From assembly GCF_021130785.1 (NCBI RefSeq), contig NC_060215.1, positions 69,258,501-69,322,500 of the forward strand: DNA of 64,000 bases, given 5' to 3'. This document shows, piece after piece, positions 5,001 through 58,400 of the stretch. The notes below the pieces were generated by a model. It was not told where the DNA came from, ran no database searches, and saw nothing but the letters and a program-made list of their open reading frames with translations. A program made the position numbers and the translations under genes. Source of the stretch: Homalodisca vitripennis. Lineage: Eukaryota > Arthropoda > Insecta > Hemiptera > Cicadellidae. Numbering within the stretch: position 1 is the stretch's first letter; the number at the start of each line of letters is the position of its first letter.

Positions 5001-8000
5001 CTGAGAGGTTTTAAGATCCAAATTTGGAAAAAAATATGATAGTAAAACAACAAGCCGTCCATAGTTTCTAAGTGATTGTAGCCAAATCGTGCATGATTTT
5101 ATTTGACATTTTCTGAGTGAGAAAATAAGCCATGACTACAAAATTAAATATAGCACATTGATGACTGTTTATGTTGCTATAAAATATTCTTTTAGTATCT
5201 TATATTAATTTGGAGGTTTAAACTGTAATATTCAACTACTGAGGAGCGAGTTAGCGAATGTGCTATATCAAAATGTATATTTTGTGTAAAGTAACAATTG
5301 ACATTAATATTAATGGCTATAACGATTATAACCATGTGTAAATTCCTAAGATTTTAGATATCCACATTCAAATTGCTACACAAAATGAACATATGGACTG
5401 ATGAGAAAGTGCTTCTTTACATTAAAAATGAAGTAATTATTTCCAATACATTTTACTCAAACGCCGGACCACCCATGTGGATTGTCTAGCACATGATCTA
5501 ATGTGTTGTGATAAACTTTTTTGTTATTAAATCATCCTCGAAGGATGTTTATTCTATATGCAAGTTCAGTGTTCTAAAAGAGTAAGATCCTGTCAGTATT
5601 TCAAAATGTATGAAATCATAATTGAAGCTCTTAGTGTAGTGTTAATATCAATTGTGTTGGCATAGGTTGATCTATACATATTTTAATCTAAAAGGACTAT
5701 CTTGTAACACTACAACACAAGTAGTGTACAACAGTACTTGTAACAGCATAATTTGTAATTTTTAGTGAACTTCACAAATGTATTATTAAAATTCAGAAAA
5801 TTATATTGTTTTCAAATGTTACAGATGATAAAAGCTATTCAAGTACTACGTATTCACCTGCTTGAATTAGAAAAAGTACAAGAACTTTGTAAAGACTTTT
5901 GTAATCGCTATATTACATGTCTTAAAGGCAAGATGCAAAGTGAAAACCTACTGAGGTCCGATTACTCCACTGGCTTTGTTGAAAACAATAACAACAGCCA
6001 CTCAAGTAACTCAAACTCCCCGACTGTCTTCAGCCCACACAGCTTGCAGGTGAGAATCCTTAGTTATAGAATGGTATAATTTATTTTAAAGCTTTGACTG
6101 TAAAAATGTATTACAATTGTTACTTAACTTCATATTTTTATGTTTATATATAAATATATATTACACACGCACACACACACAATAATAGATTGAATTAATC
6201 TTTTTCAAATAACTGATACAAGGGCGTTTTTAATGTTTTATATTAGTCATTGAAATATGCATTTTTTGTGAATGCATATATACATCTATACTATATCAAT
6301 CAATCAATATCTTTATTCAAGACATACATAAAATGTACATGAATGCGTCATTCTTAATAAATAAATTCAAGGTGATGTTATATTAGTTGCACATATATAC
6401 AATCCTTTTAATGTAAATTATTTTCAAAATCTTAATATAGTTGAAAATAGGTTTAATATTATTTAAATAGTTTTTATTACCAAATTATAAATAATTCCAC
6501 TAGACTTCAGAAATCAAAATTAAAATACATGGCTCTGGGAGTAAAACTCTTCAAAGTTATAACATGATAAATCCATTAAAAACTGTTTTAATTTATTTTT
6601 GAATCTAACACTATTGTTTTCATTCCTGATGCTACCTGGCAGGTTCCCTATAAACTTGATTCCCATTTAAGTTGGGCTTTGCTTAAATTTTTCTTTATTA
6701 TGTTGTTTTATTACAAAGTTATTTTTGTTTCTTGTATTATAATCATAAACATGTAGTTGTCGTGGTAATTTAGTCTCATTATTTTTTTACATATAATACT
6801 GTTCTATATATATATATAAAGGCTGTATACAGTCATAAACTCGAGCCCTTTAAAATATAACTTACATGACTCATCTTTTTTGAGTTTTAGAATCACTCTA
6901 ATTGCCTCCTTTTGTAGACTTAAAATTTTATTCAGGTTTACAGCACTTGTTCCCCCATACACTTCAATCCCGTATGCGATATGTGAATGAACCGTGGCAT
7001 AGTACACTGATTTCAAGGTTTGTTTATTACAAAAAGGTGCTAGCCTTCTTAGTGCAAAAATTTCTGAACTTATTGTGTTACATATTTTTTGTACATGAAT
7101 GTTCCAATTAAGTGTATTATCTAAATGTAGCCCTAAAAATTTAGTTTCTTTATCCAGGTTTTTCATATTAATTTTGTTTGATTCAACATTTTTGCAAGTA
7201 AACTGTATAAAAGTAGTTTTATTATCATTGAGTAGAAGATTTCTGTTATTTAAATAACTTTTTAACAATGAAACTGATTCGTTAATTTCTTCTTAGTTGT
7301 ACCTAATTCCATATCGGCAATGCACAAGCTTATATCATCAGCATACAAACAAATGTTACTATTCTCAATATTATATCATACAGATAATTAGGTAAACCCC
7401 CCAAGTAGCACAAGAACAGGAAAGGGCCTAATATTGACCCCTGTGGGACAGAGTAGGTCACATTTTTTGTATGAAACCTAACATCATGCTGATTATTTTT
7501 ATTAAAATACTTAACATTAACAAACTGTCGACGGCCTTCCAAGTACGACTTAATCCAGCTAAGCTCTTTACCAATGATACCATAGCTTTTTAATTTTTCT
7601 AGTAATATTTTATGATCAGCACTGTCAAATGCTTTGGTCAAATCTATGAAGGTGTCAACAATGTTGTATCCCTCATCTAAGTTCTCTAAAATGTGTTCAA
7701 TATAATTTCTTAATGCTGTTAATGTGGATCTATTTTTCCTGTATCCATGTTGATAAATGTCAAGTAATTTATTGTTTTCAAAATAGTCAACTAATTGAAT
7801 CATCACACACTTTCAAATATTTTAGATAAGGACGGTTAAATAGCCAATGGTCTGTAGTTAAGAGGATCAGTACAATCCCCTTTTTTATGTACTGGTATTA
7901 TTTTTGAAATTTTTAATTGAGAAGGATATATTCCAGTTACGAGTGATGCATTAATAACATGTAACAGAGGTTTAATTAGTGGTAATTTCGCTTTCTTAAC

Positions 8001-11000
8001 AATTTTCATGGGTATGTCATTATACCCTGCTGACCACTTAGGTTTTATTGAATCAATTATCTGATGTAGAGTTTTATCATCAATTGTGTTACAAATAAAT
8101 CTGGATTCCGTTACTTGCTGTATCGAATCCTCTGTTTGAACATAATTTTTACTTAGATTAGGGATAACATGAGTATCAACCATTTCAACAAAATTGTTAT
8201 TAAAAATATTTGCAACTTTGTATGGATCCTCTATACGAATACCATCCTTTTTAAGTGCAATATTAGGTGACTACTTTTCTTTTTTATTTTTTGTTTCACT
8301 ATTAATGATATGCCAAATTGTTTTGTTAACATTAGTGGACTTTTTTATTTTTAAATCAAAATGTTTTTTCTTTTTACATAAAATTGTTTTTTTGAGATAT
8401 TTCTTGTGTGCTTGTATAGTTTTTTTTTTTTAGATTTATATTACTCTTATCTTTCCTACTGCTGATGCATGTCAATAAGCTTATCATGCTCATTAACAAT
8501 TTCATCATCTACCCACTCTTTATTTTGGTTTCATTTTGTAATTTTAGTCAGAAGAAAATGCAAATCAAAATAATATTTGATCAAGTTGTAAAAATAAAGA
8601 AACTTATCTTCAACAGAACTTTGGTAAAGTTCGGTCCAGTCTTGTTTCTCCAAGTCGCCTTTAAACAAGTCAATTTTATCTTTTCCATACTTCCTGCCCA
8701 TTACTGTATTTTTTATATTATGACCTCTTTTATTATTAATGTTTACTATTTTAAAAAGTTGTGCATCATGATCGGATAGAGCAGTTATCAAACATTCCAC
8801 TTCAAAAGAATTTTCGTCTAGGTTTGTGATGAAATTATCAATAGCAGATTCATATGTTTCTATTATTCTAGTAGGTATTTTTGTAGTATACAGGGTGTAT
8901 ATTATGTCTGGAAACACCCAAATATATCCTTTAATAATTTAAATATAAATTTGAAACCTCTTACAATCGTGATAGAGATTGGGCATCTACTTTTTGGAAC
9001 AATGTTTTGTTGTGTCACACCAACGGGGGACGTCCTGCCGAGGGTATTGTGAATATTCTTAATGGAAGCCTATACCTTGTGATACATAATTTTAAAGGTA
9101 ATAGCTTACTGAATTGAATGCCACAAACCGCATCTCAAGGGAATTATTCTATCAGAAAATAGAGCATTTTTAGTATTGAAAATTTACTGATGTTCAACAA
9201 TGTAATTTTAACATGGTTCTTGCCACAAAATGTGTTACACTAATTTTTTAGCATTTTTTTAAATGTTCAATTAAATAAAACAAAAATTTCATTTTAAGCT
9301 GGTTCTATTAGCACAAATTTGCCAGTTTTTATTACAGTACAATTATGGAAATACTTATGTTATTGATTTCTTATTACAAATAAAAAATAATGTATGCTGT
9401 TAGAAAAGTCTTACAACAAACGTTTTACCTGCATTTGGTGTCAAAGCAATTGTTCGAACTGTGTTCCTTCTACGGTTTGACAATGAGCCAATCTTGTGTA
9501 AAATGATTCGACAGAGTTGCCTAACATTTCTTCAGTTATCAAAGCAATCTCCTCTATAATCCTGTTTCTTAGGTCTTCCAAATTATGAGGCTTTCTTCTA
9601 TAAACATTGGATTTTAAATGACCCCATAGGAAATAATCGATTGGTGACAAATCCGGAGATCTTGGAGGCCATTCGATTTCTCCTCTTCGGCCAATCCATT
9701 TATGAGGAAACCTTAAATCCAAATACTCTCTTACCTGTCTCCCATAATGGGGTGGAGCACCATCCTGCTGAAACCATACATTATCAAAGTATTCTCCTGA
9801 TGCAATTTGAATAGCTGGGATTATTTCATTTTGGAGCATATTGTAGTAAAGTTCGGCATTTAAATTTCCATTGATGAAAAAGGGTCCAACAATTTTGTTA
9901 CCTAAAATTCCACACCATACGTTCAGTTTTTGTGGTTGCTGTGAATGGGACTCAGTAATCCAATGTGGGTTTTCACTAGCCCAGTAACGGCAATTGTGCC
10001 TGTTAACATTGCCATTTAGGAAAAAAGTTGCCTCATCAGAAAATAGTATGTTGGTCAGAAAATCTCTATTGTCATCACATTTGCGCATCACAAGTTCACA
10101 AAACTCAACTCTTCTGTCGTAATCATCCTCACTTAACTGTTGGACTAAATGAACTTTAAATGGTTTGTATTTATTAATTTTCAAAATCTTACTCACAGAC
10201 ATAGGGTGCATATCATGTTGCTGTGCAGCTTTTCTGAGCGATGTATGTGGGTCTTCAATAAATGTTTGCAAAACATCTAGTGCATGTTCTTCATCTGTTG
10301 CAGATTGTATCCTTCCCGACTTTGGCCGATTACGTACACTCCCTGTCATTTCAAAACGCTCAATAGTTTTTGATATTGTTGAAACACTTATGGGATTCCT
10401 TTCTGGGAAAGTGTCATTAAACAAATTACAAACTTCCCGATAAGATCTTTGACGATCGCCATATCCTCGCATCATCAACAGAGTAATTCGTTCTCTTTCA
10501 GACAATTCCATTAAAATGCCAAATAAAAACTGAACTACTGTAATTAGATAACTTGTTGACAGCAATGCTTCAGAGACACTGATTAACTCAACAGGAATGA
10601 TATGACCTTTGTCCATTTGTAATTCCCAAGCTTAGACCTGTCTAGTGAAAGCTCCATGCTCAACAAACTGAAACCTGTAGACCAGATGATTAATAACACA
10701 ATAATGTTTCTCATAGGCTAGTGACCTTTGTCTCTTTAAACCTTCCTGCTGACTGGAAAACACCAAGTACAGATTCATAAGTAATCAGAGAAAGTGACTC
10801 ATAAGTTTTATTCATTGTAATAAAAACTGGTAAATTTGTACTAATGAAACCAGCTTAAAAATAAATTGTTTATTTTATTTTAATTGAACATTTAAAAAAT
10901 GCTAAAAAATTAGTGTAACACATTTTGTGGCAAGAACCATGTTAAAATTACATTGTTGAACATCAGTAAATTTTCAATACTAAAAATGCTCTATTTTCTG

Positions 11001-14000
11001 ATAGAATAATTCCTTTGAGATGCGGTTTGTGGCATTCAATTCAGTAAGCTATTACCTTTAAAATTATGTATCACAAGGTATAGGCTTCCATTAAGAATAT
11101 TCACGATACCCTCGGCAGGACGTCCCCCGTTGGTGTGACATAACAAAACATTGTTCCAAAAAGTAGATGCCCAATCTCTATCACGATTGTAAGAGGTTTC
11201 AAATTTATATTTAAATTATTAAAGGATATATTTGGGTGTTTCCAGACATAATATACACCCTGTATTTAAACCCATGCATATTGATAACCCTAACAAAGTC
11301 TGTTTTCTTCCTGCCCTCCCTCAAAACATCCACATTAATATCCCCACCTATTAAAACGTTTTTGTTGATTCTACAAATTTCTGCCAAAAATGTGTTTAAT
11401 TTTTCAAGAAAAATGTCTATTTTCTCAGAGGGTGTTCTATAAAGTCCAGCCACAATAAATTTTGTCTGGTCTATCTTAATTTCTATAGTACATGACTCAA
11501 AAACTTTATCTTGATTTAAAGTGTTTATAGCATTAACAGAAATTTTTTTCACACTACTTAATTTCTCTGATACTAGTATTAAAACCCCTCCCCCCTGACA
11601 AGAATTTCTTACATACCAGTTTACGCAAGAATAGCCAGGTATTTTAATTTAATCTATTACATTTTCGTTTAATTTGTGTTCTGTTAGAACTACTACATCG
11701 GGATTTATTTCCTGTAATGTAATAATTAATGCGTCAATTCTAGATTCCAAATGTTGAATGTTTTGATGGAAGACAATTAAGTGATTTGGTAACATATTCC
11801 CTGATTCCCTGTATTATTATTATTTTTAGATGTATGATTAGTGCCTAATTTTCTATGTCTGTTAGAATTGATGCAGTTATTATTTATGTTAATGGTGAGA
11901 ACACCGTTAGATCTAAAAAACTTGAGCCCTTATTCTCTATGTCCAAAGAGAGGCAATTTTGTGACGAAGATCCTCTGCAAAGTCAGTGACTGATAGTCCA
12001 TTCCACAGTTGTCAGTTTGAATTTTTATTACGTATGATGATTGAAATAGAAGCTCCTGTGGTCTGCTTAAAGTTCACTATATTGGCAGCAAAGATGTCTA
12101 ATGGAATATTATCCCGAACACAACCCATAGGAGAACATATTAATTTCTTTAAACCCCTTCTTTTAAAGTCTTCTGTGAAATGTCTGGATGCAGTGTTGTA
12201 ATCTGATATATGTGGTTTACTATTATAATGTGGTTTTGTGACTAAACCGTAGAAGTTTTCTCCATTTGGAATTTCTTGATGGGTTAGATGTTTACTCTGG
12301 AGAGATGATGGTTTACCAATTAGATTTTTTAAAACTGTTGCCACCCCGGCACTCATATTTCTTTCATGATCAAGGTCTCCAGAAATCCAGTGGGCAAAAG
12401 CCCAGAGATCCTTGTTTAAGTTTGATTTAATTAATTGTTTCATATCAGATTTAATTACATCTATCTGGCACTGCCACTTCATTGATTTAAAAGGATCGTC
12501 TTTATCACCTGTTTTATTATTTGGTAATTCCCCATCAGGATATAAATGAGCATTACTAAGAGAATTTATTAACATATAAGCCAACTTTCTTTTACCTCGA
12601 TAATTAAGGTGCAAGCCATGTCGAGTAAAGTGAAACCTTATCAGCCAGCCGTTCTTTCCGTTTTCTTCAAGATCAATGACCACTACTCTGTTCATCCTCA
12701 CTGCAAGTTCTCTTATATAGCTGTTTACCAAACATATTTCATCATGAAGAGGATCACACAGTTCTAGGTCGTAACGATGGGGTATAGTGGTTATTAGTAT
12801 AGTTTTACTTTTACTTAGCAATTTCAAGTCTTTTTCTAAGTTACTGTAAATGTTCATAGTTGTTTTATTTGTAACATCATTTGTACCCACAATTATTATT
12901 ACTGGATGGTGGCCAGATCTTGCAGCTTGTCTATAAACTTCCTGAGTTGATGCCCCGGGTATAACTAGACCATTTATTCTAATCTTGCCCTTACTACAGG
13001 TGTCAATTATTTCTGGAAGATCTCTCCCATGGCTGTCTGTATAAAACTCAACTCTCATTGGTAGAGCCTCATCCACACCTCCTTTACGAGTTTCTTCCAT
13101 GGTTGTAGATTTGTTATCATGCTGCATCCTCAGTAAGTCATTACTGTTATTGTGCCGAAGAAGAGCCAAACAATTGGCTGCACTTTGGACCGAAAGAGAC
13201 TCCCTTACACGTGATTTAAATAAGAGTTCTTTTACTGTAGAGCAATCAAATTTCAGATATTGGTTATTAAACCATAAATAAGCAAGACATGACCTCTTCA
13301 TTATTATGTCACTCTCATGTATATGGAGCAATGATGAACTATTTATGATCAAATTTGAGATGTTGTTTTCAATGATTCCTTTCATCAGCCAGTCAATGAA
13401 CAGCAGCATGTATATGCCGCAGTCAAGTGAATTGTTCTGCTGGGGACAAACAACGCTTTTAAAAGTAGCTTTTTCAGAAGAGACACACTTTGATAGTTTA
13501 TTGAACATTTCTACGGCTGGTTTTAAGTTGTTGTTTGATTGAATCAAAATAGTAGAAAGTATTGTCAGTTCTAAGATAAAACAAGAGACTCCAGTGTGTG
13601 CCTGAACCCTCCCCTTCTGTTACCGCATTATTAACTGGAATAAAAATGTAGCTTTTGTCTTTTAGCGAAGATACCACCAAATTGATATCACTGATTGCAT
13701 GGCTAAGCCCTGGGTCTATAAAAGCAGTATTGAGAGCTTCCATTTCACAGTTGTTTAAAGTTTTAAAATATACTTCAATAGTATCGTCGGTTATCCATTC
13801 ATTCCCCAAGAGAGCAAGACTGTAGCTACTATTGTCTATGGTTTGACTGCCAATGCTTTGTTGATTTATTTTTAGTCGTGTATTGTTGGAGGAAGGTAGT
13901 ATACACTTTTTCTGGGAAGAGTTTAGAAGCGATTTCTGAATTTTATGTTCTGTTTTCAAGTTATTAAGTTCTTGGGATACATTCTCATGCACTGAAATAA

Positions 14001-17000
14001 ATTCACTTTTTTGCTTGTCGGCACTGTTCATGAGCATTTTAAGGTGTTTTACTTCTTGCAAGGCACGTTTCAATTTATCTGCACATTTTTGCTTATCCTC
14101 TTCAAGTTTAAAAATAAGATTACTTTGGAGTTCTGCGTCAGTATTAGATTTTTCATATAAAAAATTAATTTTACTAATTAATTCAGTTTCCATCCTCTCC
14201 TTTTCCTTTGCTAAGACATTGATTTTATTTTACATTTCCTGTATTTTGCAATCCATTTCTAAATTCACTTTTGTTTCATAATGTTTTAATTGAAAAATTT
14301 GTTGCTTTATTTCTCATTTTATTCTACTAATAAGGTAGCAGCTAGTGTGAGAGTGGAATTAATATCAACTTCATTCTCATTGCCAAGGTTCTGAATTTGC
14401 TCCTTTAAATTGTCCAAACTGATGTTTAGATTGGGATTATTTAAGTTACGAATGCAATTTAAACATTTCCAGTTGTTTGAATTTTCTTTACTCAATTTAT
14501 TAAACTCTGCATCAGTCATGCTAGTACATTTTTTATGATACCACAATTTACACATACCATTACAAAGTACTGCTGATGATCTAATCCTTGACCCACAAAC
14601 TCCACAAAGAAATTTAGGCATTTTTTATGTTTTTCTTTTTTTTTTTTGCAGCGATAAGTTTGATAGTTTAATAATAAATATAGTTAAAGGAGAGATAAAT
14701 TAATAAACTGTTATTATCCAATTATTCACATATAGCAAATATATGTTTCTCAATAATATTGTAACTGTAAATAATTACTGTGTTTTTATCTGAACTACAC
14801 AAATAATATTGCTGGTAAAAAGTAGTCTCAGTTTGCACCCAATCCTGGGAAGTAGGCATACAGTAACAGTTGCCAGTGACCTTGACTATTGAGCCATTCA
14901 GGATGGCAAGATAACAGCTGCAGTCTGTTTAAAGTTAAAGCTGTTTGACCTTTGTCTGGTAATAATCTAGTGTGCCTGTTCCTGTTTCCAAGTTACTACA
15001 TGAATCAGACTAGTGTTTCACTTCCTGTTCAGCCACTAATTAATCAACAAATATTAATTAAGACAATTTTTATTTTTACTTATATCTCACTTGTAACTTT
15101 GGATATTATAAAAAAAGAAAAGAGAAGGGCAAGACCTTTCATCTTAAACATTACATTATTAAACTTACTTTAATTTTATTTCAATTTTGCTTTGGGGAGA
15201 ACCACTTAGATTTTGTTAAAGTATAACTCTGAATTAACCCATATGCTTTTTCTCTAGTTTGGGGTCTCCAAAAGTTTTAATCCGAAAACTAAATTGTAAA
15301 AGGAGGCATACAGCCTGAGTATTTCAACTGTATTTTAGTGGAAGATAGTATGATTGATATGTATACAATCCATAAGAATTGAAAGTTTTACAGTAACTAA
15401 TGTAGTAGATATCTTCAAACATTTCTTTACAAAATACAATTTTTTATTTACTGAAATTAAGATTCTTCTGAGTTGTTGACAATACAGTCGCGTTTTTCTT
15501 CTCTAGAGCCATCCTTTGTCTTTCTTGTGATGTGTGAGATTTATGTAGTTGTTTTTGGCAGAAACACTCAGTCCACCCGAGCTCCCAATTTGACACAACC
15601 TTCACCAAAATAGTTACTAGGTGCTCATTAGAAAGGTTTTCTCTATACTTAGATTTAATAAACATCATTTTCAAAAAGGTTTTGTGACAAATACATGTAT
15701 ATACAAAAATTGAAAACATTCTTCTTGCAATGTTTTGCTCGTTTGAAGTCATGCGAAACCATGGATGTTTAAAATCTTTCTGATTTGAGTATTAATAAAT
15801 TATAAATCAATACAATTAATTAATAAACCTAGACTTGGAAATATATTTAAAAACCTACTTGTAAAATGGAAGATCTGTATTTTTAACCTGTTAGATCTCG
15901 CTGCCGCACAGTTGCGGCCGAGATAAGTGTGCAGTCGTGGCCTATCGGCACATGGTTGCGGCCACTTGCAAGCCTTTTAATTTTGTGTTTTCTTGGACAC
16001 ACCTTGCTAAATTAAATGACATACAATATACTGAGATTCACAGCAGAATACAGGCTTTCTCGTGATGTCTATTTCGTTTTACACTACGATACTTGGCAGC
16101 CTGTTTTTACTCCAAACATTGAGACGATACAGCCGGCAGCTGTTGTTCGTAAACACAAATATGGCTTCGCGTAAGTGTAAGTACTCGATAAAGATATCAA
16201 AGAATTATTGTGTTATGAGTTTAGTGAGTTTTCTGATAGTGATGAAGAAAGTGAAGTGGATATTTTAAGTATTAAAAGACGTGATGATTTTATTTTTAAC
16301 AAAATTTCAACTTTAAAAAATGGCTTTGTCTCTTCTGTCAATGAATCATCAGTATCAGCAAATTAAGTTTTTAATTCGTCTTATTTTCATGGCGGCACCA
16401 ACTTTACATACTTCAATGGGAAAAGTAAAGACATTGCAAGTTCCAAAGTGGTCCAAATTTGTTTTTCTTAATTGATTTTTTAAAGAAAGCAAGGTTTATT
16501 CTAAACACTTGGACTTGGATCAAATAATTTACAAATGATTTTTCATCTTAAGTATTTAGGTAAAAAAGAACTGAGATGAGAGGTAATATTTACTGGAAAT
16601 GCAAGTTTCTAAAGCCAATGATTATTTAAAAGCTCTTTTACTGGCTTCGGCTTTTCAATCATGAATATAGCTTGATTGTGAAAGAACACCTGACTAATGA
16701 GAACCATAACTCACCAATTGCAATAATAATTTAAAAGTAAAAAATGTCCTGTCATGAATGTCCTTGAAAATTAAAAATGTTTTGGAAATCACAAAAATAA
16801 TAAATGTATACATAACATACTGTATTCTTGTCTATAACCGGTTATACACTGAAGTTTAATTATTTATATTTCTTCATTGTGTTGAGTCATTTTGTGTGTA
16901 TATTTATTTGTTTTGTGATAATTTAAATCATGACTACATGTTCAGTTTTTAACAAATTTGATGATCTGATGTGTTCCCAAAACTAACTATCTAGTTTAAA

Positions 17001-46400: not shown

Positions 46401-49400
46401 TCTAACGTGCCATGTGAGGTCATGGAGAAGGACAATTCCCTTTGTCAGCATGATGCGTCTTTTGTTTTGAATTGCTCTGAGAGCTTTCTCAGGGTTTGGC
46501 AGTATGCTTCTGCATTGATAGTGGTTTCTCATTGCATGATGTCGAGTAATAAAACACCATGCCTATCCCAAAACACCTATGCCATGATTTTGCATTGGGA
46601 CAGGGTTTTTTTAACCTTCACCTTTACAGGCAAGTGTGTGTGTCTCCATTCCATGATCTGTTGCTTCGATTCTGGTGTGATATGCGAAACCCATGTTTCA
46701 TCTCCAGTTACAATTTGATTCAAAAAGCCGTCACCTTCTTTGTGATAACGAGTCAAGAACTTCATTGCACACTCATCTTTGGTTTGTGATCCTCTGTTAG
46801 GAGTTTCAGGACCCAACAGGAGCACGGTTTCCTAAACTTTAGGTGTTCAGAAACAACGTTGTAAAGCACTGATTTCGACACATCAGGAAATTTGTTTAAG
46901 GGACCTACCTGTTATTGTGAAGCGCCAGTTACCGTCACCTTTACTATTTCCTTACAGTATAGTAGTATAGTACACAAATGATTATTGCTACATTTATTGA
47001 TCACCACAGGTGCAGGACTCATTTTATAGTGTTCTTAGTCTTTAACATCATACTAGAGATCGTGAATGGTTGTAATCTGAATTCTCCCACTTATCGGTTT
47101 TCTCTCCCTGAAGGATAAGCTGTACAACTAGTTCAGTGAAGAGTATCATGTAATCTCCACACTCATATTGGTTGGTCTGTTGAGTGGCTTTCTAACATTA
47201 CATTTGCTTTCATGTGTACTTACTAGCTTGCTTTGCAACACTTCAGTGAGTTTTCCAGGACCATTGATAAACTGTTTAGACTGGTTACCCAGTTTTGTTT
47301 GGTTGCAAGATAGATGAAAGATTGTCTGATAATGGATATAATGAATTACCTCATACACTGTTGTTAACAGCTAACTAGACCTTTCTTATTTCTAAAGAAT
47401 TGCAAGAAACCGAAAATAACAAAGATTCTCAAAATTTTTTATTATATATATATTTTTTTTAAGATAAAGTGTTTAAAAGTACAATTTCTTAAAATGGAGC
47501 ACCAAAAAAACTGCACAATTTCACACAAAATGTTCAAACAAAACCACTTTTAAACCACTTAAAAACAAGTTTGAGGAGCTGAAAAATAATAAGTCTCTAC
47601 ATCCCACTCCTGGCTAAACGTTCTGGTTAGTGTATGATTAAATTTCAAAGTCTGGTATATCAACTTTTTGATCCAAGAGTAGTTTGAACTATGCAGTTCA
47701 TGATTTGATGTGATTAACTAAATGCTACGATTCTATTAAAACCTCAGTATACCTTGCAGTTGTTTAATACAATTCCACTGAATTATCTAGCTATCAAACG
47801 GTATTGAATAACACAACCTACTCTCAATGTACTTAACTGAGAGGCTTAGTTCTAATTACTAATAGAAGACAAAATATTTAGAGAATTGCCTAATTTATTC
47901 CCAATTAGTTAGTTTAGGGGTACTACACTCACATGGAGACCTGCTAACCTTCATGCAAAAGCATTCAGTGAACAAAGATTTATTATGTGAGTAGCTGTCT
48001 CCACTTGGGTTTCAGGCATTTCCTCTACCCAACTGTGCTAAATCTGTTTAAAGCAGACAATTCCTCCTGGGAAGATCTATACCATCTATCAGTGTTGTTG
48101 TATGTGGTACGAAGATGTTATTTGTCCTTTAAAACCTCCAAAGTATTCAACTCTTATCATCATATAAGGAACACAATATTCAGTTGTCAAAAACACCCAA
48201 GGGAAAAAAGTTGAAGTACGGAGAATATTCGTGTTAGTTTATTAGCTGTATGCTGCACCATGGTTGCTTTGGGTCTAATGACAACAATACTTTGGACATA
48301 GCTTGTAAGTGTCAGAGAGCAAAAGTACTACAGGTATCTGTTATGGCAAAGAGGAATGTCGTCGTTAAGCCTGTAATTAACAAATCTGTGTTGAGATAAA
48401 AAAAATAGGTTATATCCATTTTTGTGACAGATTCAAATCAACAGAACGTCTGTTATCAATAGGATACTATAACACAATCAGTTATGTTCCAATAATATAA
48501 AATATATTTAATTGTGTTATTCCGAAAATGAATCGATGTTTGATGTTTTTGTGTGCAGTGTTTCTGGTTTCTATACTTCTAAATAGGACCTAAAACCTAT
48601 TCCATCTCCATATTACAGCCTCCTTCATTGTTTCCTTAAGAGCCGCAAGTCAGCACTGGGAAATATAAAATATAAACACAGATCAACCTGTATATGGTTT
48701 TAAAGGTGTGTATGAGAAAAACAGAGATAAATTGAGATATAATTTGATTAAAATTATAGAAATTTCAGGATTTTTATTGTTTAGTATTAAATTAGACCTA
48801 TCTATTTGTGTCTACGATTTACCTACAATAATATTTAATGATGAGAGCTAAAAATAATTTATCACAAGTGGGGTGTTAATTTATCACACACGCACGTACG
48901 TTTAATCAGGTTGACAGTTGAAAAATAATAAGTTTCCTCTTATGTTCGGACAATTTTCTGTACATAGTGTTCTAGTACGTGAACGTTGATATTTTGATCA
49001 CTTATCCAGTATTCTATGACAAATGTTGGTAATTGAGGGATACGTGGTGTACAAATGTACACAAATTTGTAATACATTGAAAATCCTGATCCATTACAGG
49101 CTTCTTCTCATATAACATCTATTCCTACTACCCTCTCTATACTGATGTCAGTTTTTAGCCAAGGATATGTCTATATACTATATATTTTTAGAATAGTACA
49201 GTCATTTGCACTCAGTTGTATTCTATTTTGATATTTCCTTATACAATGCTATAATTCATAGATATACTTTAAAATTCATAGTTATAACTGTAGATTCTTT
49301 TACTTAATGTTTTAAAAATATATCCTCTTAAAACTATAAACTTGGTGATTTCCAATTTTCCTCATTTCAATGGTAAATCTTAAAAATTATTTTATCCCAT

Positions 49401-52400
49401 TCAATGTTGATTCCTTATACAACAAAAACAGACCAATTAATACATAAGTAGTCAAAGTCAAAATTTCTTTATTCAAAATTTGTACATATACAGTTACATA
49501 CACATACAAACATTGAATGGTGTCAGCTATAACATACATAACATAACATACATTTACATAATAAATGGACATCATTAAATTACCTTATTTTAACAGTGTA
49601 TTTCACAACCACCTATCAGTTTATCAAAAACTCATCAAAAGAATACAAAGATTTACTTATAAGATATTGTTTTACTGTTTTTTTAAAAAGTAAAAAAACT
49701 ATAAATTTTTAAAATATGTTCTGGTAAGCTATTATAAAACTTAATACCTGCTACTTTACCTGGTTTTTTTAGGTAATTTTTAGATTTATATGTGGTGCTG
49801 CAAGCTGATTACGATTCCTAGTTAAATAATTGTGCGAAGCCCCCAATTTTGGTAATGTGTCATTTACTTTTTTTACTACAAGTACCGTTTCCAATATGTA
49901 AAGTCTGTAAATTGTTAGAATGCCTAGATTCGAATAAATGTCTTGATTTTTGATGGTGTAGTTTAAGCATAATCCTTATGGCTTTTTTCTGTAATATCAA
50001 ATTGCAAGTTTTTATCACTTGTTGCTCCATAAAGCACAACGCCAAAGGAAATGTGGGACTGTATATGAGAATAATAAACCATTTTCAAGGTATCAAGTTC
50101 ACAGTATTTTGAGAGAGTATATAAAACAAATAACCCCGAGGATATTTTCTTTTCAATGTGCTGTATATGATTATCCCATGTTAAGTTCTTATCCACAATT
50201 AATCCTAGGAACTTAGTCTGGTTTACCTGTTTTATTTGTGTGCCAAGCACTTCAATTGAAGGTACTACATCATTTCTGTTTTGCCTAGTACTGAAAGAAA
50301 TAAAATTTGTTTTATCAGGATTTAACAATAGATTTTTACTACTAAAATAATTAAGTATTGATATTAAGTTAAGATTGGATACATTTTGAATTTCGTTAAA
50401 AGATTTATGAGAAACAAGTAGATTGGAATCATCAGCACACAGAAACATCCTACTGTTAATGCTAGATACAGATTTTGGCAGACCGTTAATATAGCACAGG
50501 AATAGTATTGGCCCCAAAATAGAACCTTGAGGCACTCCATATTTAATAGTTTTAATTTGTGATTTTACAAAGCTAATTTGGCTGTCCTTATCAATATAAG
50601 ATAGTTCAACATACTGGTTTCGATCTTTTAGGTATGAGATAAACCAATCTAAAACGATTCCTGATATACCTAAGCTGTTTAAAACTCTGATAAGGCTGCT
50701 ATGGCAGACACTATCGAATGCTTTACTGAGATCCGTGAAGATACCAACAGCATGGTCTCCTCTATCGATAGCATCTAATGTTGATTCAACAAACAATGCC
50801 AGCAGTAATAACAGACCAACCAGATCGGAATCCGTGCTGCTCATCATCAAATTTATTATTGTTCTCAAGAAATTCAACAAGCCTTATATACATGACTCTT
50901 TCATATATTTTAGAGAATGTTGGTATTATAGACAATGGGCGGTAATTACTTGGGTCAGTTGTGTTACCTTTCTTAACACTTTGAGTGCTGGCCCTAAATA
51001 ACATGCAACTCTGTAGAATGCTGGGCGTTTTTGGTGGTTTTTACAAATTTATTAAAAAAAAAGTATTTAAGATATAAGAAAAATATTTACATGCCTTAAT
51101 TCAGCTTACTTTCGTCTTTATTTTAACGTAGGATTGTTAGTGTTTTTTTCAAAAACTACACATAAAATCTTTTTTTGAAAAACATATATTTTTGAAAAAA
51201 AAAATTATTTTTTGAGACAGTTTTTTTATCTAAAAAACTAAACTAAACATATATACAATTATTTACAATGACCCATTTACAAATATAAACTGTCCTTTGA
51301 ATAATACAAATCATGTTTTTATGTTTTGTAGTTTTTTGACAAAAAAACTATGCCGACATGTTGATGCGTCGGCATCACTTTCGCCGTCAGTACTGTTTTC
51401 AGCATCTGTAACATAATAATATACCGTGTAAAATATGAGTATGTTTTCATTTTATTCATATAAATAGAATATTAGTTGAATAAAGTTAATTTATTTTAAC
51501 AAATTATAGTTTGATTCACGAAAACAATAACATAACCAAACTTTTAGACTGATGTTTATATAGACTTATTCTTACCTGAAATATGTATCTCATCTTCTTC
51601 CATGAAATCAGGATCGATGTCAGAATCGTCAAAAATACTATCAACACCAATAAAACTATCTTCATCTAATACATCACTGATCGCAACCGTCGTTCAAGCT
51701 GCGATAAGCCATGATTGCGACATCGACTGCCGGCTGCAACGAACGTCACGTCAGCGGCACGTAAACAATGCGACCGAAGTCGCTTTGTCATTAAGCTCAT
51801 TCAATACATCTGACGCTTTTTAGCGGTTAATTGTGTTACTAAAAACCCAAATAACATTGTAGATTAGGCAAAACCCGTTTAAATACGGACAATGTAATAT
51901 AATACCAATTGAAATGACAACCACGTAAAACTACGGGATTAGCATTCTTCGGAAGTTTCGCTGTTCTGTAAAATTACGGGATTAGCACTCTAAGTGTTAA
52001 ATATTGTTTTAATTTTAGAAATTTTTAATCTGTTAAGGAAAATGCCACTCACAAAAGAAGAGTTAATTACATGAGCCAAAGGCTTAATCAAAAGATGCTT
52101 AACATTCTTAATAATGGGCATAGGAACTTCGTCATAACCAGCAGAATATTTATTTTTAAACGATGATGTAATTTTGTCCAGTTCAATTTCGTCAACTGGT
52201 GTTATATGGAAACGCTTATCAGATAAATTTTGAATGACAAAAGGTAAATTGTTAGGATTTGCATCCTTTTGCAAGTTTGGAATGACACAATTATCTACCA
52301 TACCTATATAATAATTGTTGAAAATTTCAGATACTTTGTAAGGATCAGAGGTATTCTTACCATCTGTGATCAATCTAATTTTACTCAAAAGTTCCTCATT

Positions 52401-55400
52401 AGGTTTTATCTCATTATTTATTACTTTCCATGTAGACTTACAAATATTATCTGAGTTCTTAATTTTGTTGTTGATGAAATCTTTTTTTAAATTTTGAGCC
52501 TTTGTTCGATACATTTTTTTTTTGTAATTTAATATTTGCTTTGTTGCTCTGTGTTTTGTTACTCGAATATTCTGACTTAAGTGAATTAACTCCTCTTTAT
52601 CCTTCCTAAGTTCATTATTTATCCAGTCATTTTTATTTCTATAAACCCTAGTTCTTAATAATGGGAAGAATACATTAAAATGATAAATAAATATATTGTA
52701 GAATAAGTCATATTTTTGATCAACTGGTGCAAGATATAAGCTCAACCATGATTCTGCCTCTAATTTCTTTTGGAATAAGATTGTATTTTGTTTTGTAAAT
52801 TTTCTTTTTAATTGTGTAAAACACTGCTTTTGCTTGACAGTTTTAAAGCAACTTCCACCAGTTGAGCATCATGATCTGATAGCTCTGTTATCACACCAGA
52901 CACCGCTACTTGTGACCTATTAATATTTGTAAAAACATTATCAATTGAGCTTTGGCTTTCTAATGTAACTCTTGTTAGGAAATGAACTAAATATTGAAAA
53001 CTGAGTTAAAATATTTTTTTAACATATCACAAGCCCTAGAATTCTTTAACATGTCAATATTAATATCCCCTGCAAATATAACATTGATATAGTTTTTACA
53101 CAAGATACCCAGCGCAATATCAAGTTTTCCTAAGAGCACTTGGTCATAAGTGGCTCCAGGTGTTCTATAAAGACCAACTACAATAATTGAATATTTCCCA
53201 ATTTTACCTGCAACTGAGCAGCATTCAAATTCCTTTTCAGTTACAAGTTCTTTAATTTGATGGATATCTACTTTTTTAAATTGGTGGGACACTGAATCTT
53301 TACAAAGAATCATAACTCCTCCACCTCGGTAAACTTTGCGACAGTAAAATGATTTGATTGTATAGTTGTTAATGGTAGAGTTAATAATTTCTAAGTTGTG
53401 TAATTTGTGTTCCGAAAGGATGACAATGTCAGAATCAATTTCACCCAGGATAATTTCAAGTGTCAATTTACGTGATTTTAAGTGCTGGATGTTTTGATGA
53501 AATATAGTAAAGAGATCGGTATTTCAATTTTTTTTGCTGTGTTAATAATGAGTTTGGAGGAGCTAACTCATTATCAATTAAGCACATTTAGGTGCTTAAT
53601 TGATCTAGAGTTTGTTATCTCGGGGTAGTCAGTATTATTTGAGAGGAGTTTAAAGGTAAGGTGTTTAAAGAACAAGTGATCACAGGTGGTTGTGAAGTTA
53701 TTTGATGATCATCTGTTTGTGAGGTTGAAGGTCCAATCACAGGGAAAGTTAGAAAAAAAGGACATGGTAGGAGAGGTGTGCTGTATGATTGAGGAGTTAT
53801 TTTCAGATTAGGTTGTTGGGGAGTTACTGGAGATCCAGATGTAGGTAAAGTGGTATCTGCTACAGTCTGTTCTTCCTCACAAGGTGCTGTAATCACTTGT
53901 TCCACAGATTCACTTTGGCTGGTGAGTAGTTCTCCAAGTTTCTCCAGGAAAACAGGGTGAGAAAGGCCCCTTCTCAGCTCTCTTGTAGACTCCTGATTGT
54001 ACGAAATGATGTATACCACTGCCTTGGTTTGTTGTTGGAACTCCATGATCCTTTTGGTGAAATGTTCAGGTTGTACCAGGTCTCTCACACAACAACCCAT
54101 CGGAGAACATACTAATGTCTTAAGGCCCTTCTTCTTAAAGTCCTCAATGAGTTGGTAAAAGGCACTGTCATAATCTTCTATTGAAGGTTTCCCGCAGTAA
54201 TTCGCTTTTGTTACAAGACTGTAGACAGAGACTTCATCTAACCGTCTCTGACACGTCAGCTTTTCATCCACATAGTCAGAATAGCGTGGCCTTCCAAACT
54301 TGCGTCTGAAGATTACAGCGAGACCACCTGACATGTGTCTCGGATGGTCAAAGTCCTTGGAAATTGTATGGCTGAAATCGACTGCTAGGTCCATTCTCAT
54401 TTGGTCTATGACATCTTCCATATCAGCATTCACCACGTTGATAGCACTTTTGTGTGTGCTTCTGTCAAACTTTGGAGGTTTTTCTTGCGGTCTCTGAAGC
54501 AGATTTTGGCTTGATCGATGATGGATCTCTGCAACAGGTTCATTGAAATAATCCAATGCCCCTGGGTCTGCAGTCAACCGCTTCTCTGTAGGCTCAAGAT
54601 CTTCAGGCGAAAGCATCAATGATCTTGCAATTATTTTAGCGACTTTGGATTTGTCCTTTTTATTCAGATGGAGACCATGTCCTGTATAGTAATGTCGGGG
54701 CAACTCGTGAAGAGGGAGTAGTTGTATTTTAGTTTTTGAGATTGATACTATATTTTGTAGTTCTGTGTTTATCCTGGTGATTTTAGCATCTAGCTCTGGA
54801 TGGTCATGTGTCATAGTCAGTGTTGCTAATATGAGATTGGTGTTTGTTGTTTTGTTAATTAGCTGCTTTACTTCAGAGATGAGGTGTTTGATGCCAGTAC
54901 TTTCAACATTATTTGTGCCAGCTATCACTAAAATGTGGTCTTTTTTAGTCAGTTCAGCTGTAAGTTTGTCAACTTCCTCGGTTACACATCTGAATCTAGC
55001 TCCAGAGCGTACAAAAGCTGATACATTAGTTTTAGGGATCCTCTGCTGTACCATTGTGCTTAGGTCCCTCCCATGGCTGTCAGCCAAAATCACCAACTTG
55101 GAAGTAAAATTTTGGTCTTTGGTTAGTTGTACATCTCTCTTCATCCAAAGTATAAGCCGCATCCTCATGAGTTTCAATGCTTTTACTGTATGTTTGTTGA
55201 AAGAATAGAATATGTATTGTCACACACAGTTACTGAACTGGTAGTTCTGGGCTTGGAAGCAGTGTTTTAGGCCTAATCCAAACATTTTCAGTGCCACCAT
55301 TAGGCTTACTTACTAATGAGGGGAAGCAAGTTAGGCATTTACCAGTGGTTGTTTTCGTTTTGGTTAATGAGACTTCTTCTAACAAATGTTTTTTATCTTC

Positions 55401-58400
55401 CTGAAGAATTTGAATTATAGATCGCAAATTTTGTAGTTCTAACTTTATTTCTTTTAACTCCCGTACAAGAATTCGAGTTTGAAAATCTTGCAAATTCTCT
55501 TCAGTTTTGTTTTGATTGTCCGTAACTTTAGTTAAATCGATTTTTGGTGTGCTACTAACTTCTAACAGGGTTTGTTCAAACTCTATGCATCCATCAGTAA
55601 CAGTATTCAGCTGTACAGTCAAATCAAGTTCAGCAGGTGTATTAACACCTACATCGACAGTATTCTTTGCCATTTGTAAAGAATTAATTTCCTCCTTAAG
55701 TTTTATGATTGCTATTTCCTTTTCACTTAGCTCTTCCTCTAATGTCTTTATCCTTTCATTGCTTGAGACAACATCAAAATGATCTATCCACTTTGTTTTT
55801 ACCAAAGTTTTTGGTGTCATATAAAAGTCTTCACTTTTGTTGTATTCATTGTTCATGTTTTCTGTATTTTGTCTAAAAGTTTTTATTATTTTATCTTTTT
55901 TAATAATTTCTTTCTTAAGGTTATCATTCTCTCTTTTTAAGTTTGATAATTCTTCAACTATCTCTTCGTTTTCTTCTTCTGCTATACGTAAAGATGTTTC
56001 AATTTTTTGTTTTTCATGTTGTAGTTGATTGTTTATTTCACATATTTTGTTTTGATCTACAAAACCCTCACAACCATTGTCAGGGTCAAAAGTAAAAACG
56101 TCATCTTCATCTTGGTTTAAATCAAAATTTTCAACTTCCCTTAACGCGTTTTGCAATGAAGGAGTTACTTTCCTGTTTGTTAGATTTAGATTTTTGCCCT
56201 TTTATCTTTGCAAAATCTTTTTCACAAACCCCAAACAATTATATTATATTAATCTGTTTATAAATCAGTTTAGTAATAAGACAGTTTATAATTTTATAAA
56301 GCAGATACACTCAATAATTTGATGTGTTTTTTACATAATATAATATTAATTTTTTTTTTTTTTCAGTAAAAATTTTACTGCCTCTAGGTGGATTTGAACT
56401 AGGGACTTTGAAGTCAGTTAGTAGTAGTGATTTTATTCACTGGGCCAATTATTATTCCAGTTGCCCAGGATCAGTTATCAGTCACTGATAAGATGGACTT
56501 TGTATTAAGCCTTGTTTACTGATGGTTGATTGACAGCTTGTAGACAACCACTAACTGTTTGATCAGCAAACAGCTGTTTCTGTAATTGAGTTGGTTAGTT
56601 GGCTGGTGGAATGATGTGATTGGTTATAACATGCTACTTGAGTCAAATTTCACCTTCCTATTTCCTGTTTAAAATATTTTGCTGCTTTATTAGAAAAATT
56701 GTCTTGTTTATAAAAATATTAATCAAAATTGTCACTAAGATAACATTAAGTGAAGAAACATTAAATACTTGTGTCTGTGATATTGCTTTAAGGTATACAA
56801 CTTCATACAGTGTGTATTCATAAACATGTGGCTTTTACCATCATGATGTAAGTAGTATTTTGAAACTAATTTATTCAATGTTGTAACTGACAAAGAAAGT
56901 AAACCTTTTATTTGAATACTTTCAGAATACTTATCTGACCATTTTCTAACACATTTGTACTTCAGAATAATACCAGAAATGTCACTTAGATCAATAAATT
57001 GTAGAGATAAAATTTAGCAGACAACACACCACCATTCACATGGGCAACCATCATAGAGTATGTTTATGCATGATTAAATAAAAATATCAAATGATGTAAA
57101 AGTTTAGGTTATAGCCATTGCCTCATGAGGCTGTTCTTCCTGCTTAGATCTTTGTCATATCATAACAATCATCTCAAGAATTAAACTTTATATCAATGTT
57201 TTTCACAGTTTATATTAATTTATCAAACATTTTTAACAGGATCCACTGGAGCCTCAACAGGAAACAAATCAAGCAGTTCCAACAAACATAAACCCGGAAG
57301 TAATGGCACGCAACGCGTTTGGCCACCCAATATTTCAAAAGTAAACTCTGTTGACAATACTGAAGGTAATTTTGTTACTTTTAATGTGTAAAAAGTGCAA
57401 TAAGTTTAGCTATTCAGTACATTATTCACTTCTCAAATCAGTTTACTTAAGTAAACATATGACCCATCATGATAAAATACAATAATATAACTTAAGAGTT
57501 CCTAGTCATTCAATTACAAAATTATTACACTGATTATAGATGCAACAAAATATATTGCAATAGTTTTAAGTTTAGTAACTACGGAATAACGTGTTGTAAC
57601 AGTGTAGAGTTTTACATTACAAATAACTAAAGTACTGTACAATTTTTCGATTGTTGTTACATTATTGACAGAACATTTTGGCTCTTAAGTTCCTTAACAT
57701 GTGTATTCTATCAATAGAGAACACAAAATCACTGAGTTTAGATCCGCAGTGAAAATGTTAAAGTGTTACTATCGTAACAGATCCTTATTGATTAAACCAG
57801 GACTCTTAATCAGATAGTGTTGGAACCATTGGCTCAGTATGCTGTCATCACTGTTGTAGTGTCCATTGTATTTTTGTAGCACGTAAGACATGGAGAGTGT
57901 CATAATGTAATTGATGTGGTATATTTTCCTGTGTGGCTCTTTCTGTAATTTTACTTGTCATGATGCTCTGTTATTATTTTTTAAACTTTACTCTACAAAT
58001 TAGTAGCTGGATATTAAGAGATGCCTTATTTATTTCTAATAGTGGAATACTGTAATTACATTTATTTCTTTGTTGCATGATTTTTTACATTATGGCTAAC
58101 TTGGGCATTGCCAGAACATGAAAATATCTTTTCTCTTATTTCCTGTGGACTTAATACATTTGGTGAAATATCTTAAGTAATACTCACTGTTGTATAAATA
58201 TATTACTGTAGCCAAATTAATGTAATAAAATTTTCAGCCTGTCTTAAGAGCCTGTCTGTAGTGAAACTAGCTTGAGTTTACCCCATAAGATCAATGGGGT
58301 CAACCTCAAATACTTTTCTTTTTTGTCGTAGAATTATGGTTGATGTCTCATTATAAATATATAATTAATATGCATCCAAATGCTTTTGAATTTTACTTTT

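What the first reader, a model, noticed from the sequence alone, without database searches (positions are those of the whole stretch)
12012..14621. LINE ORF1 with PHD finger, coiled coil, Ulp1/SENP (C48) protease, SGNH hydrolase and macrodomain
Read in order on the minus strand, LINE A ORF1 shows a C4HC3 PHD finger, a coiled coil, a C48 protease with His (GTHWSLLFY), Asp (YYFDS), Gln and Cys ([10 protein letters not shown]), an SGNH hydrolase and an OARD1/TARG1-like macrodomain. PHD and SGNH domains are known in CR1/L2-type ORF1. A SENP8-like protease together with an ADP-ribose-type domain is not something I know in a LINE. A retrotransposon that can strip ubiquitin-like and ADP-ribose marks could be countering PARP- or SUMO-based silencing. 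The function is inference.
Basis: partly seen in the sequence, partly recalled or inferred. Interest (0 to 1): 0.88.

Follow-up and report, generated by a model that had tools for sequence, protein, structure and literature searches.

The report
LINE ORF1 with mark-erasing enzymes
A family of insect jumping genes carries, in one protein, look-alikes of cellular enzymes that remove two kinds of regulatory tags (NEDD8/SUMO-type tags and ADP-ribose) plus an esterase-like domain and often a chromatin-binding module, which suggests, but does not prove, that the element edits host marks to get copied.

Summary
On the minus strand, ORF1 of LINE A (14,624-12,012) has a PHD finger, a coiled coil, a C48 protease of the SENP8/DEN1 type, an SGNH domain and a TARG1/OARD1-type macrodomain; endonuclease and reverse transcriptase pieces follow. 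This copy is a fossil: ORF1 lies in three pieces and ORF2 carries a mariner-like insertion. It is not chance or misassembly: 27 of 67 proteins found in two searches carry all three enzyme domains in one predicted protein (a few cut short), 12 of them in permuted order (macro-C48-SGNH), and N-terminal modules vary (PWWP, MBD, FLYWCH). Catalytic residues are invariant wherever a row covers them (C48 His 31/31, Asp 33/33, Gln 35/35, Cys 35/35; macro Lys 51/51, Asp 51/51). A second LINE in the window (LINE B) has SGNH and macro without the protease. Weak points: PHD and protease were not seen in one intact ORF; the SGNH lacks the usual catalytic Asp; no activity is shown; the window's own genome could not be searched. 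Ulp1-type proteases are known in NeSL and one Utopia element, PHD and esterase in CR1/L2; a macrodomain in a LINE was not found in the paper listings seen. Most likely an eraser module countering host tagging; function inferred.

The parts
14319..14624 (-). LINE A ORF1 piece 1: PHD finger (about 14,454-14,606), ATG at 14,621
   Evidence: PF00628 E 5.5e-6, residues 7-57
13498..14229 (-). LINE A ORF1 piece 2: coiled coil (read by eye from the sequence, similar to the P0050 stretch), then N-half of C48 protease (about 13,501-13,839) with His and Asp
   Evidence: PF02902 E 8.2e-5; family C48 profile E 2e-27; His and Asp present; P0050 match 13,995-13,531
13317..13544 (-). C-half of C48 protease with Gln and Cys, in another frame
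   Evidence: PF02902 E 6.7e-6; family profile E 2e-15
12546..13070 (-). SGNH hydrolase-type domain
12015..12464 (-). TARG1/OARD1-type macrodomain, Lys-Asp pair present
11310..11774 (-). LINE A ORF2 endonuclease (one in-frame stop)
   Evidence: 43% identical to the LINE B endonuclease over 157 columns
8888..11265 (-). mariner/IS630-like DNA transposon inserted in LINE A ORF2: 124-base perfect inverted repeats at its ends; DDE ORF 9,441-10,631
6804..8707 (-). LINE A ORF2 remainder with reverse transcriptase (RVT_1 in 7,330-7,812), several frames
   Evidence: PF00078 E 2.4e-14; homology to LINE B
55230..56201 (-). LINE B ORF1 piece: coiled coil
53615..55219 (-). LINE B ORF1 piece: SGNH (about 54,608-55,114) and macrodomain (about 53,924-54,442), no C48 detected
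   Evidence: family profiles E 8e-24 and 2e-79
52987..53523 (-). LINE B endonuclease
   Evidence: PF03372 E 1.4e-6
49963..52868 (-). LINE B ORF2 remainder, reverse transcriptase in 49,963-50,883
   Evidence: PF00078 E 5.3e-18
47084..47182 (-). 33-residue relic of a C48 active-site stretch
   Evidence: tblastn with P0008 E 3.2e-5 and P0009 E 1.3e-4

Best explanation
Shown: an APE-type LINE whose ORF1 carries a SENP8/DEN1-like C48 protease, an SGNH domain and a TARG1-like macrodomain behind a coiled coil and, in this copy, next to a PHD finger; these enzyme folds occur together across a diverse family, with protease and macro active-site residues invariant. Inferred: ORF1p multimerises on the element RNA; the N-terminal module (PHD here, PWWP/MBD/FLYWCH in relatives) brings it to chromatin or DNA; the protease removes NEDD8, SUMO or ubiquitin-like tags and the macrodomain removes ADP-ribose from ORF1p/ORF2p, target chromatin or nicked DNA. 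This would counter SUMO-dependent silencing and the PARP response to the nick made in target-primed reverse transcription. Which tag and which substrate is open.
Against: No activity is shown. LINE B and many relatives (24 of 71 entries) have SGNH-macro without C48, and 7 have C48-SGNH without macro; both sets include truncated gene models, but some members look full-length, so neither eraser is indispensable. The SGNH lacks the Asp three residues before the catalytic His in 66 of 67 covering rows. The PHD is not shown to share an ORF with the protease (0 of 67 proteins). The window copy is dead, and its own macro stretch alone gives only E 0.51.
Confidence: 0.45

Rival explanations
1. The C48 protease is a processing protease: it cuts the element's own ORF1/ORF2 products (as the related adenovirus protease does for viral proteins; recalled), and the macrodomain is an independent module.
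For: The adenovirus endoprotease Pfam family matches weakly in P0017 (E 0.084) and P0068 (E 0.0076, below cut-off); long low-confidence linkers lie between domains.
Against: By profile and fold the closest relative is the deNEDDylase SENP8/DEN1; sister elements without C48 have the same SGNH-macro unit, so processing would not be general.
Confidence: 0.18
2. The macrodomain and N-terminal modules work as readers for targeting: they bind ADP-ribose at DNA breaks and modified chromatin to place integration; hydrolysis is secondary.
For: The N-terminal modules found are chromatin readers or DNA binders; PHD as a targeting module was proposed in PMC4120745 (passages).
Against: The catalytic Lys-Asp pair of TARG1, not only pocket residues, is invariant in 51 of 51 covering rows.
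Confidence: 0.22
3. The enzyme domains act on host signalling or RNP state in general (for example deneddylation of cullins, lipid or acyl removal by SGNH at membranes) and not in counter-silencing.
For: Closest protease is the NEDD8 protease; the SGNH esterase of ZfL2-1 ORF1p was tied to lipids (PMC3905857, title and passages).
Against: Chromatin- or DNA-binding modules in the same proteins point to the nucleus.
Confidence: 0.12
4. Host genes or misassembly: the domains were captured by chance beside a LINE.
For: Four of the 31 proteins are Homalodisca models named sentrin specific peptidase 8; one Macrosteles protein is macro plus C2H2 fingers.
Against: Two divergent LINEs in this window carry SGNH-macro upstream of EN/RT, one of them with C48; 27 divergent proteins keep all three domains.
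Confidence: 0.03

Closest known systems
SENP8/DEN1/NEDP1 (C48 deNEDDylase)
   Same: Best profile and fold match; His-Asp-Gln-Cys all present
   Different: Encoded by a LINE, in one protein with SGNH and macro; specificity unknown
TARG1/OARD1 (C6orf130) ADP-ribosyl hydrolase
   Same: Best profile and fold match, catalytic Lys (K84) and following Asp (D125, its role recalled) invariant
   Different: 22-25% identity in the structure alignments; part of a LINE ORF1
NeSL and Utopia-1_TSP non-LTR elements
   Same: Ulp1-like protease N-terminal in the element protein (PMC4640811, passages)
   Different: Utopia elements generally have one protein with a restriction-like endonuclease; here an APE-type endonuclease in ORF2, and SGNH and macro besides
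Type III/IV ORF1 (PHD; esterase) of CR1/L2 LINEs
   Same: PHD finger; SGNH domain (PMC4120745, passages; PMC3905857, passages)
   Different: No protease or macro is mentioned in the main text of PMC4120745 (0 hits for Ulp1, protease, peptidase, macro)
Ginger1 DNA transposons with Ulp1/OTU (and PHD)
   Same: Ulp1 with PHD in a mobile element (PMC2836005, passages)
   Different: DNA transposon; no macro or SGNH named in the passages seen

Membership tests
SENP8/DEN1-type C48 protease | C48 fold, SENP8 closest | tested here: met
SENP8/DEN1-type C48 protease | His-Asp-Gln-Cys catalytic residues | tested here: met
   31/31, 33/33, 35/35, 35/35 covering rows of 36; the window has all four, in two frames
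SENP8/DEN1-type C48 protease | cleaves NEDD8 | not testable with these tools
   needs an enzyme assay
TARG1/OARD1-type macrodomain | macro fold, TARG1 closest | tested here: met
TARG1/OARD1-type macrodomain | catalytic Lys and Asp | tested here: met
   51/51 and 51/51 covering rows of 56; Lys role from PMC8501950, Asp role recalled
TARG1/OARD1-type macrodomain | ADP-ribosyl hydrolysis | not testable with these tools
   needs an assay
SGNH esterase as in type IV ORF1 | Ser, Asn and His | tested here: met
   Ser 61/61, Asn 66/66, His 66/66 covering rows of 68
SGNH esterase as in type IV ORF1 | Asp three residues before the catalytic His (D279/H282 in ZfL2-1) | tested here: not met
   Of 68 rows: His 43, Gln 10, Lys 5, Arg 4, five other letters once each (one of them Asp, P0057), one gap; the window has His
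APE-type LINE | ORF1 followed by APE endonuclease and RT on one strand | tested here: met
   LINE A and LINE B
APE-type LINE | clade (CR1, L2, Jockey ...) by RT phylogeny | not tested
   no reference RT set on hand; LINE B RT against PDB gave no hit at E<=0.01
NeSL/Utopia | Ulp1-like protease in the element | tested here: met
NeSL/Utopia | restriction-like endonuclease C-terminal to RT | tested here: inconclusive
   An APE-type endonuclease precedes RT (PF03372 in LINE B), which argues against membership; the RLE itself was not searched for
PHD-type ORF1 of CR1/L2 | PHD at the ORF1 N-terminus | tested here: inconclusive
   PHD present but not shown in one ORF with the rest; tail against the P0050 linker reached by 46 of 2000 shuffles

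The most novel reading that the evidence does not exclude
A LINE family whose ORF1 protein is a chromatin-guided multi-eraser, with a deNEDDylase/deSUMOylase and a TARG1-like ADP-ribosyl hydrolase joined to an esterase-like domain, used as counter-defence against SUMO- and PARP-dependent restriction; in my searches the first macrodomain hydrolase seen in a retrotransposon, with modular swapping of the chromatin-binding module.
Probability: 0.4. Interest if true: 0.9.

Novelty: new variant of a known kind. Interest (0 to 1): 0.75.

Why it matters
What ORF1 enzymes do for LINEs is an open question. A family in which protease and ADP-ribosyl-hydrolase active sites are kept in every row that covers them, in two domain orders and behind several different N-terminal modules, makes 'do LINEs erase host marks?' directly testable; in the one insect with data seen here, Drosophila, SUMO is required to silence the R1 and R2 elements. 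It also warns annotators: four such proteins are annotated as SENP8 genes in the Homalodisca genome.

Tried and rejected
Chance or misassembly was rejected because of the relatives and LINE B. Pfam lists no macro match in the window ORF nor in the tables for all 67 proteins at E<=0.01, so Pfam alone would miss the domain. Scans of viral contigs and genome contigs (prokaryotes) with the macro alignment found 0 relatives (35 and 31 pattern matches, none confirmed); neither collection holds insect genomes as such, so this says little. The third protein search, with alignment A5, was swamped: 3 hits among 7,994 scored, namely P0050 again, P0068 (a further protein with all three domains, not in my counts) and a slime-mould SENP8. 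LINE B RT against PDB gave nothing. The PHD tail was compared with five proteins: P0050 46/2000 and P0068 13/2000 shuffles reach the score, P0067 777, P0022 938, P0002 1955 of 2000; the P0068 alignment lies elsewhere in its coiled coil, and no correction for five tests was made. So this is only suggestive. Trees of macro, C48 and SGNH (FastTree, midpoint-rooted) differ in topology, for example for P0020, P0058 and P0067, and many supports are low; I read this only as a hint of module shuffling. SGNH matches of the single sequences stay below Pfam's cut-off for GDSL_2.

Counts by architecture are of proteins found by searching with these same domains, so they do not estimate frequencies in genomes; database clusters are at 90% identity, several Homalodisca models are truncated or near-duplicates, and rows not covering a site were set aside as stated.

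Full report
What is in the window. On the minus strand, three stop-to-stop ORFs cover ORF1 of LINE A: 14,624-14,319, 14,229-13,498 and 13,619-12,012. Pfam finds a PHD finger (E 5.5e-6), the N-half of a C48 protease (8.2e-5), its C-half (6.7e-6) and a GDSL/SGNH domain (2.4e-6, below the curated cut-off). The last 150 residues match nothing listed in Pfam; in a single-sequence PDB search that stretch matches only OARD1/C6orf130 entries, best E 0.51. Downstream lie an endonuclease (11,774-11,310) and RT pieces (8,707 to about 6,804), split by a mariner-like element with 124-base perfect inverted repeats at 8,888-9,011 and 11,142-11,265. The copy is therefore dead in both ORFs.

Relatives. A search with the 535-residue ORF found 31 proteins, many of them annotated proteins of the glassy-winged sharpshooter Homalodisca vitripennis (P0001, 94% identical over 64% of the query). 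The window is thus probably from that leafhopper or a near relative (inference). A search with the macro region of P0018 found 38 proteins, 36 of them new. Domain profiles built from the family give, for 71 entries (67 proteins and 4 window ORFs): C48-SGNH-macro 16 (one is the window), macro-C48-SGNH 12, SGNH-macro 24 (one is LINE B), C48-SGNH 7, SGNH alone 8, macro alone 2, C48 alone 1 (LINE A piece 2), none 1 (LINE B piece 1). So 27 of 67 proteins have all three domains; in P0013 the macro is only a short start and in P0006 and P0008 the C48 is cut at its start. These 27 are not copies of one another: the best match of any to another is 37-73% identical, in part over the macro region only. 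P0002 (906 residues) holds PWWP, C48, SGNH and macro in one predicted protein, P0050 (1,076 residues) likewise, P0007 has an MBD in the same place. Over all 67 proteins Pfam finds PWWP in 14, FLYWCH in 7, MBD in 6 and PHD in 1 (P0028, which has no C48) at E<=0.01 (31, 8 and 28 of the 67). The MBD protein P0042 has the permuted order.

Active sites. C48: His 31/31, Asp 33/33, Gln 35/35 and Cys 35/35 of the rows that cover the position (36 rows). Macro: the Lys aligned with TARG1 K84 51/51 and the following Asp 51/51 (56 rows). In TARG1 the K84A mutant is inactive, and TARG1 removes ADP-ribose from thymidine in DNA (PMC8501950, passages). SGNH: Ser 61/61, Asn 66/66, His 66/66 of 68 rows, but the Asp that forms the triad in ZfL2-1 (three residues before His; PMC3905857, passages) is replaced, by His in 43 of 68, and the position of the oxyanion Gly is Gly in 32 and Asn in 27 of 68. 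So the esterase may work differently or not at all, whereas protease and macro look active. With a mean pairwise identity of 34% among 30 C48 rows this conservation speaks for selection on catalysis; dN/dS was not possible without DNA of other copies.

LINE B. At 56,201-49,963, same strand, lies a second LINE: coiled coil, SGNH and macro in ORF1, then endonuclease (PF03372 1.4e-6) and RT (PF00078 5.3e-18). Its ORF2 is 43-48% identical to that of LINE A in the endonuclease, the middle stretch and the first RT block, and 30-40% in two further pieces. Both LINEs of this type that I found in the window thus carry the macrodomain; only LINE A has the protease. A 33-residue C48 relic sits at 47,182-47,084.

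How it may work. The coiled coil and LINE context suggest RNP assembly; the N-terminal module suggests chromatin or DNA binding; the two erasers suggest removal of ubiquitin-like and ADP-ribose tags. SUMOylation is required for Piwi-dependent silencing and for silencing of R1 and R2 (LINEs, recalled) in Drosophila ovary (PMC8733420, passages), and ZAP restricts human LINE-1 (PMC4423928, title and start of abstract in a listing; that ZAP is PARP13 is recalled). That nicked target DNA activates PARP is general knowledge. Counter-defence is therefore the reading I favour, with reader-guided targeting and own-protein processing as rivals. None is tested.

What is known. PHD and esterase in CR1/L2 ORF1s (PMC4120745, abstract and passages); Ulp1-like proteases in NeSL and Utopia-1_TSP (PMC4640811, passages); Ulp1, OTU and PHD in Ginger1 DNA transposons (PMC2836005, passages). 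Literature searches for macro domains in retrotransposons (3 papers listed; 14; 17; 15 of 71), for Ulp1 in non-LTR elements (20 of 125 listed; 8 of 28) and for PWWP/FLYWCH/MBD in non-LTR ORF1 (at least 4 of 6 terms, 0 papers) listed nothing that I recognised as describing this combination; I judged by listings and opened passages of six papers in all. Subscription papers and Repbase were not available, so priority is not established.

Limits. The PHD lies next to the rest but is not shown in one ORF with it: 0 of the 67 proteins combine PHD with C48. The clade of the LINE was not determined. Copies in the window's own assembly could not be searched in eleven attempts.

Noticed in passing
window 53,615-56,201 and 49,963-53,523, minus strand: Second LINE (LINE B) with SGNH and TARG1-type macrodomain but no C48 in ORF1; several of its closest relatives carry an N-terminal PWWP.
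   Followed up: yes
window 8,888-11,265: Mariner/IS630-like transposon with DUF4817-type HTH, DDE ORF (396 aa) and 124-base perfect terminal inverted repeats inserted in the LINE A ORF2.
   Followed up: partly
protein P0054 (Macrosteles quadrilineatus, 'zinc finger protein 391-like'): LINE-type macrodomain with complete catalytic pair joined to C2H2 zinc fingers on a chromosome-size contig: possible domesticated or chimeric host gene, or a gene-model fusion.
   Followed up: no
proteins P0018, P0032-P0042: Permuted order macro-C48-SGNH; they form one clade in the C48 and SGNH trees, and in the macro tree a clade together with P0043 and P0046.
   Followed up: partly
68 SGNH rows: The canonical catalytic Asp is replaced (mostly by His) while Ser, Asn and His stay: an altered esterase.
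   Followed up: partly
window 47,084-47,182: Short C48 active-site relic of a further element, outside LINE A and B.
   Followed up: no
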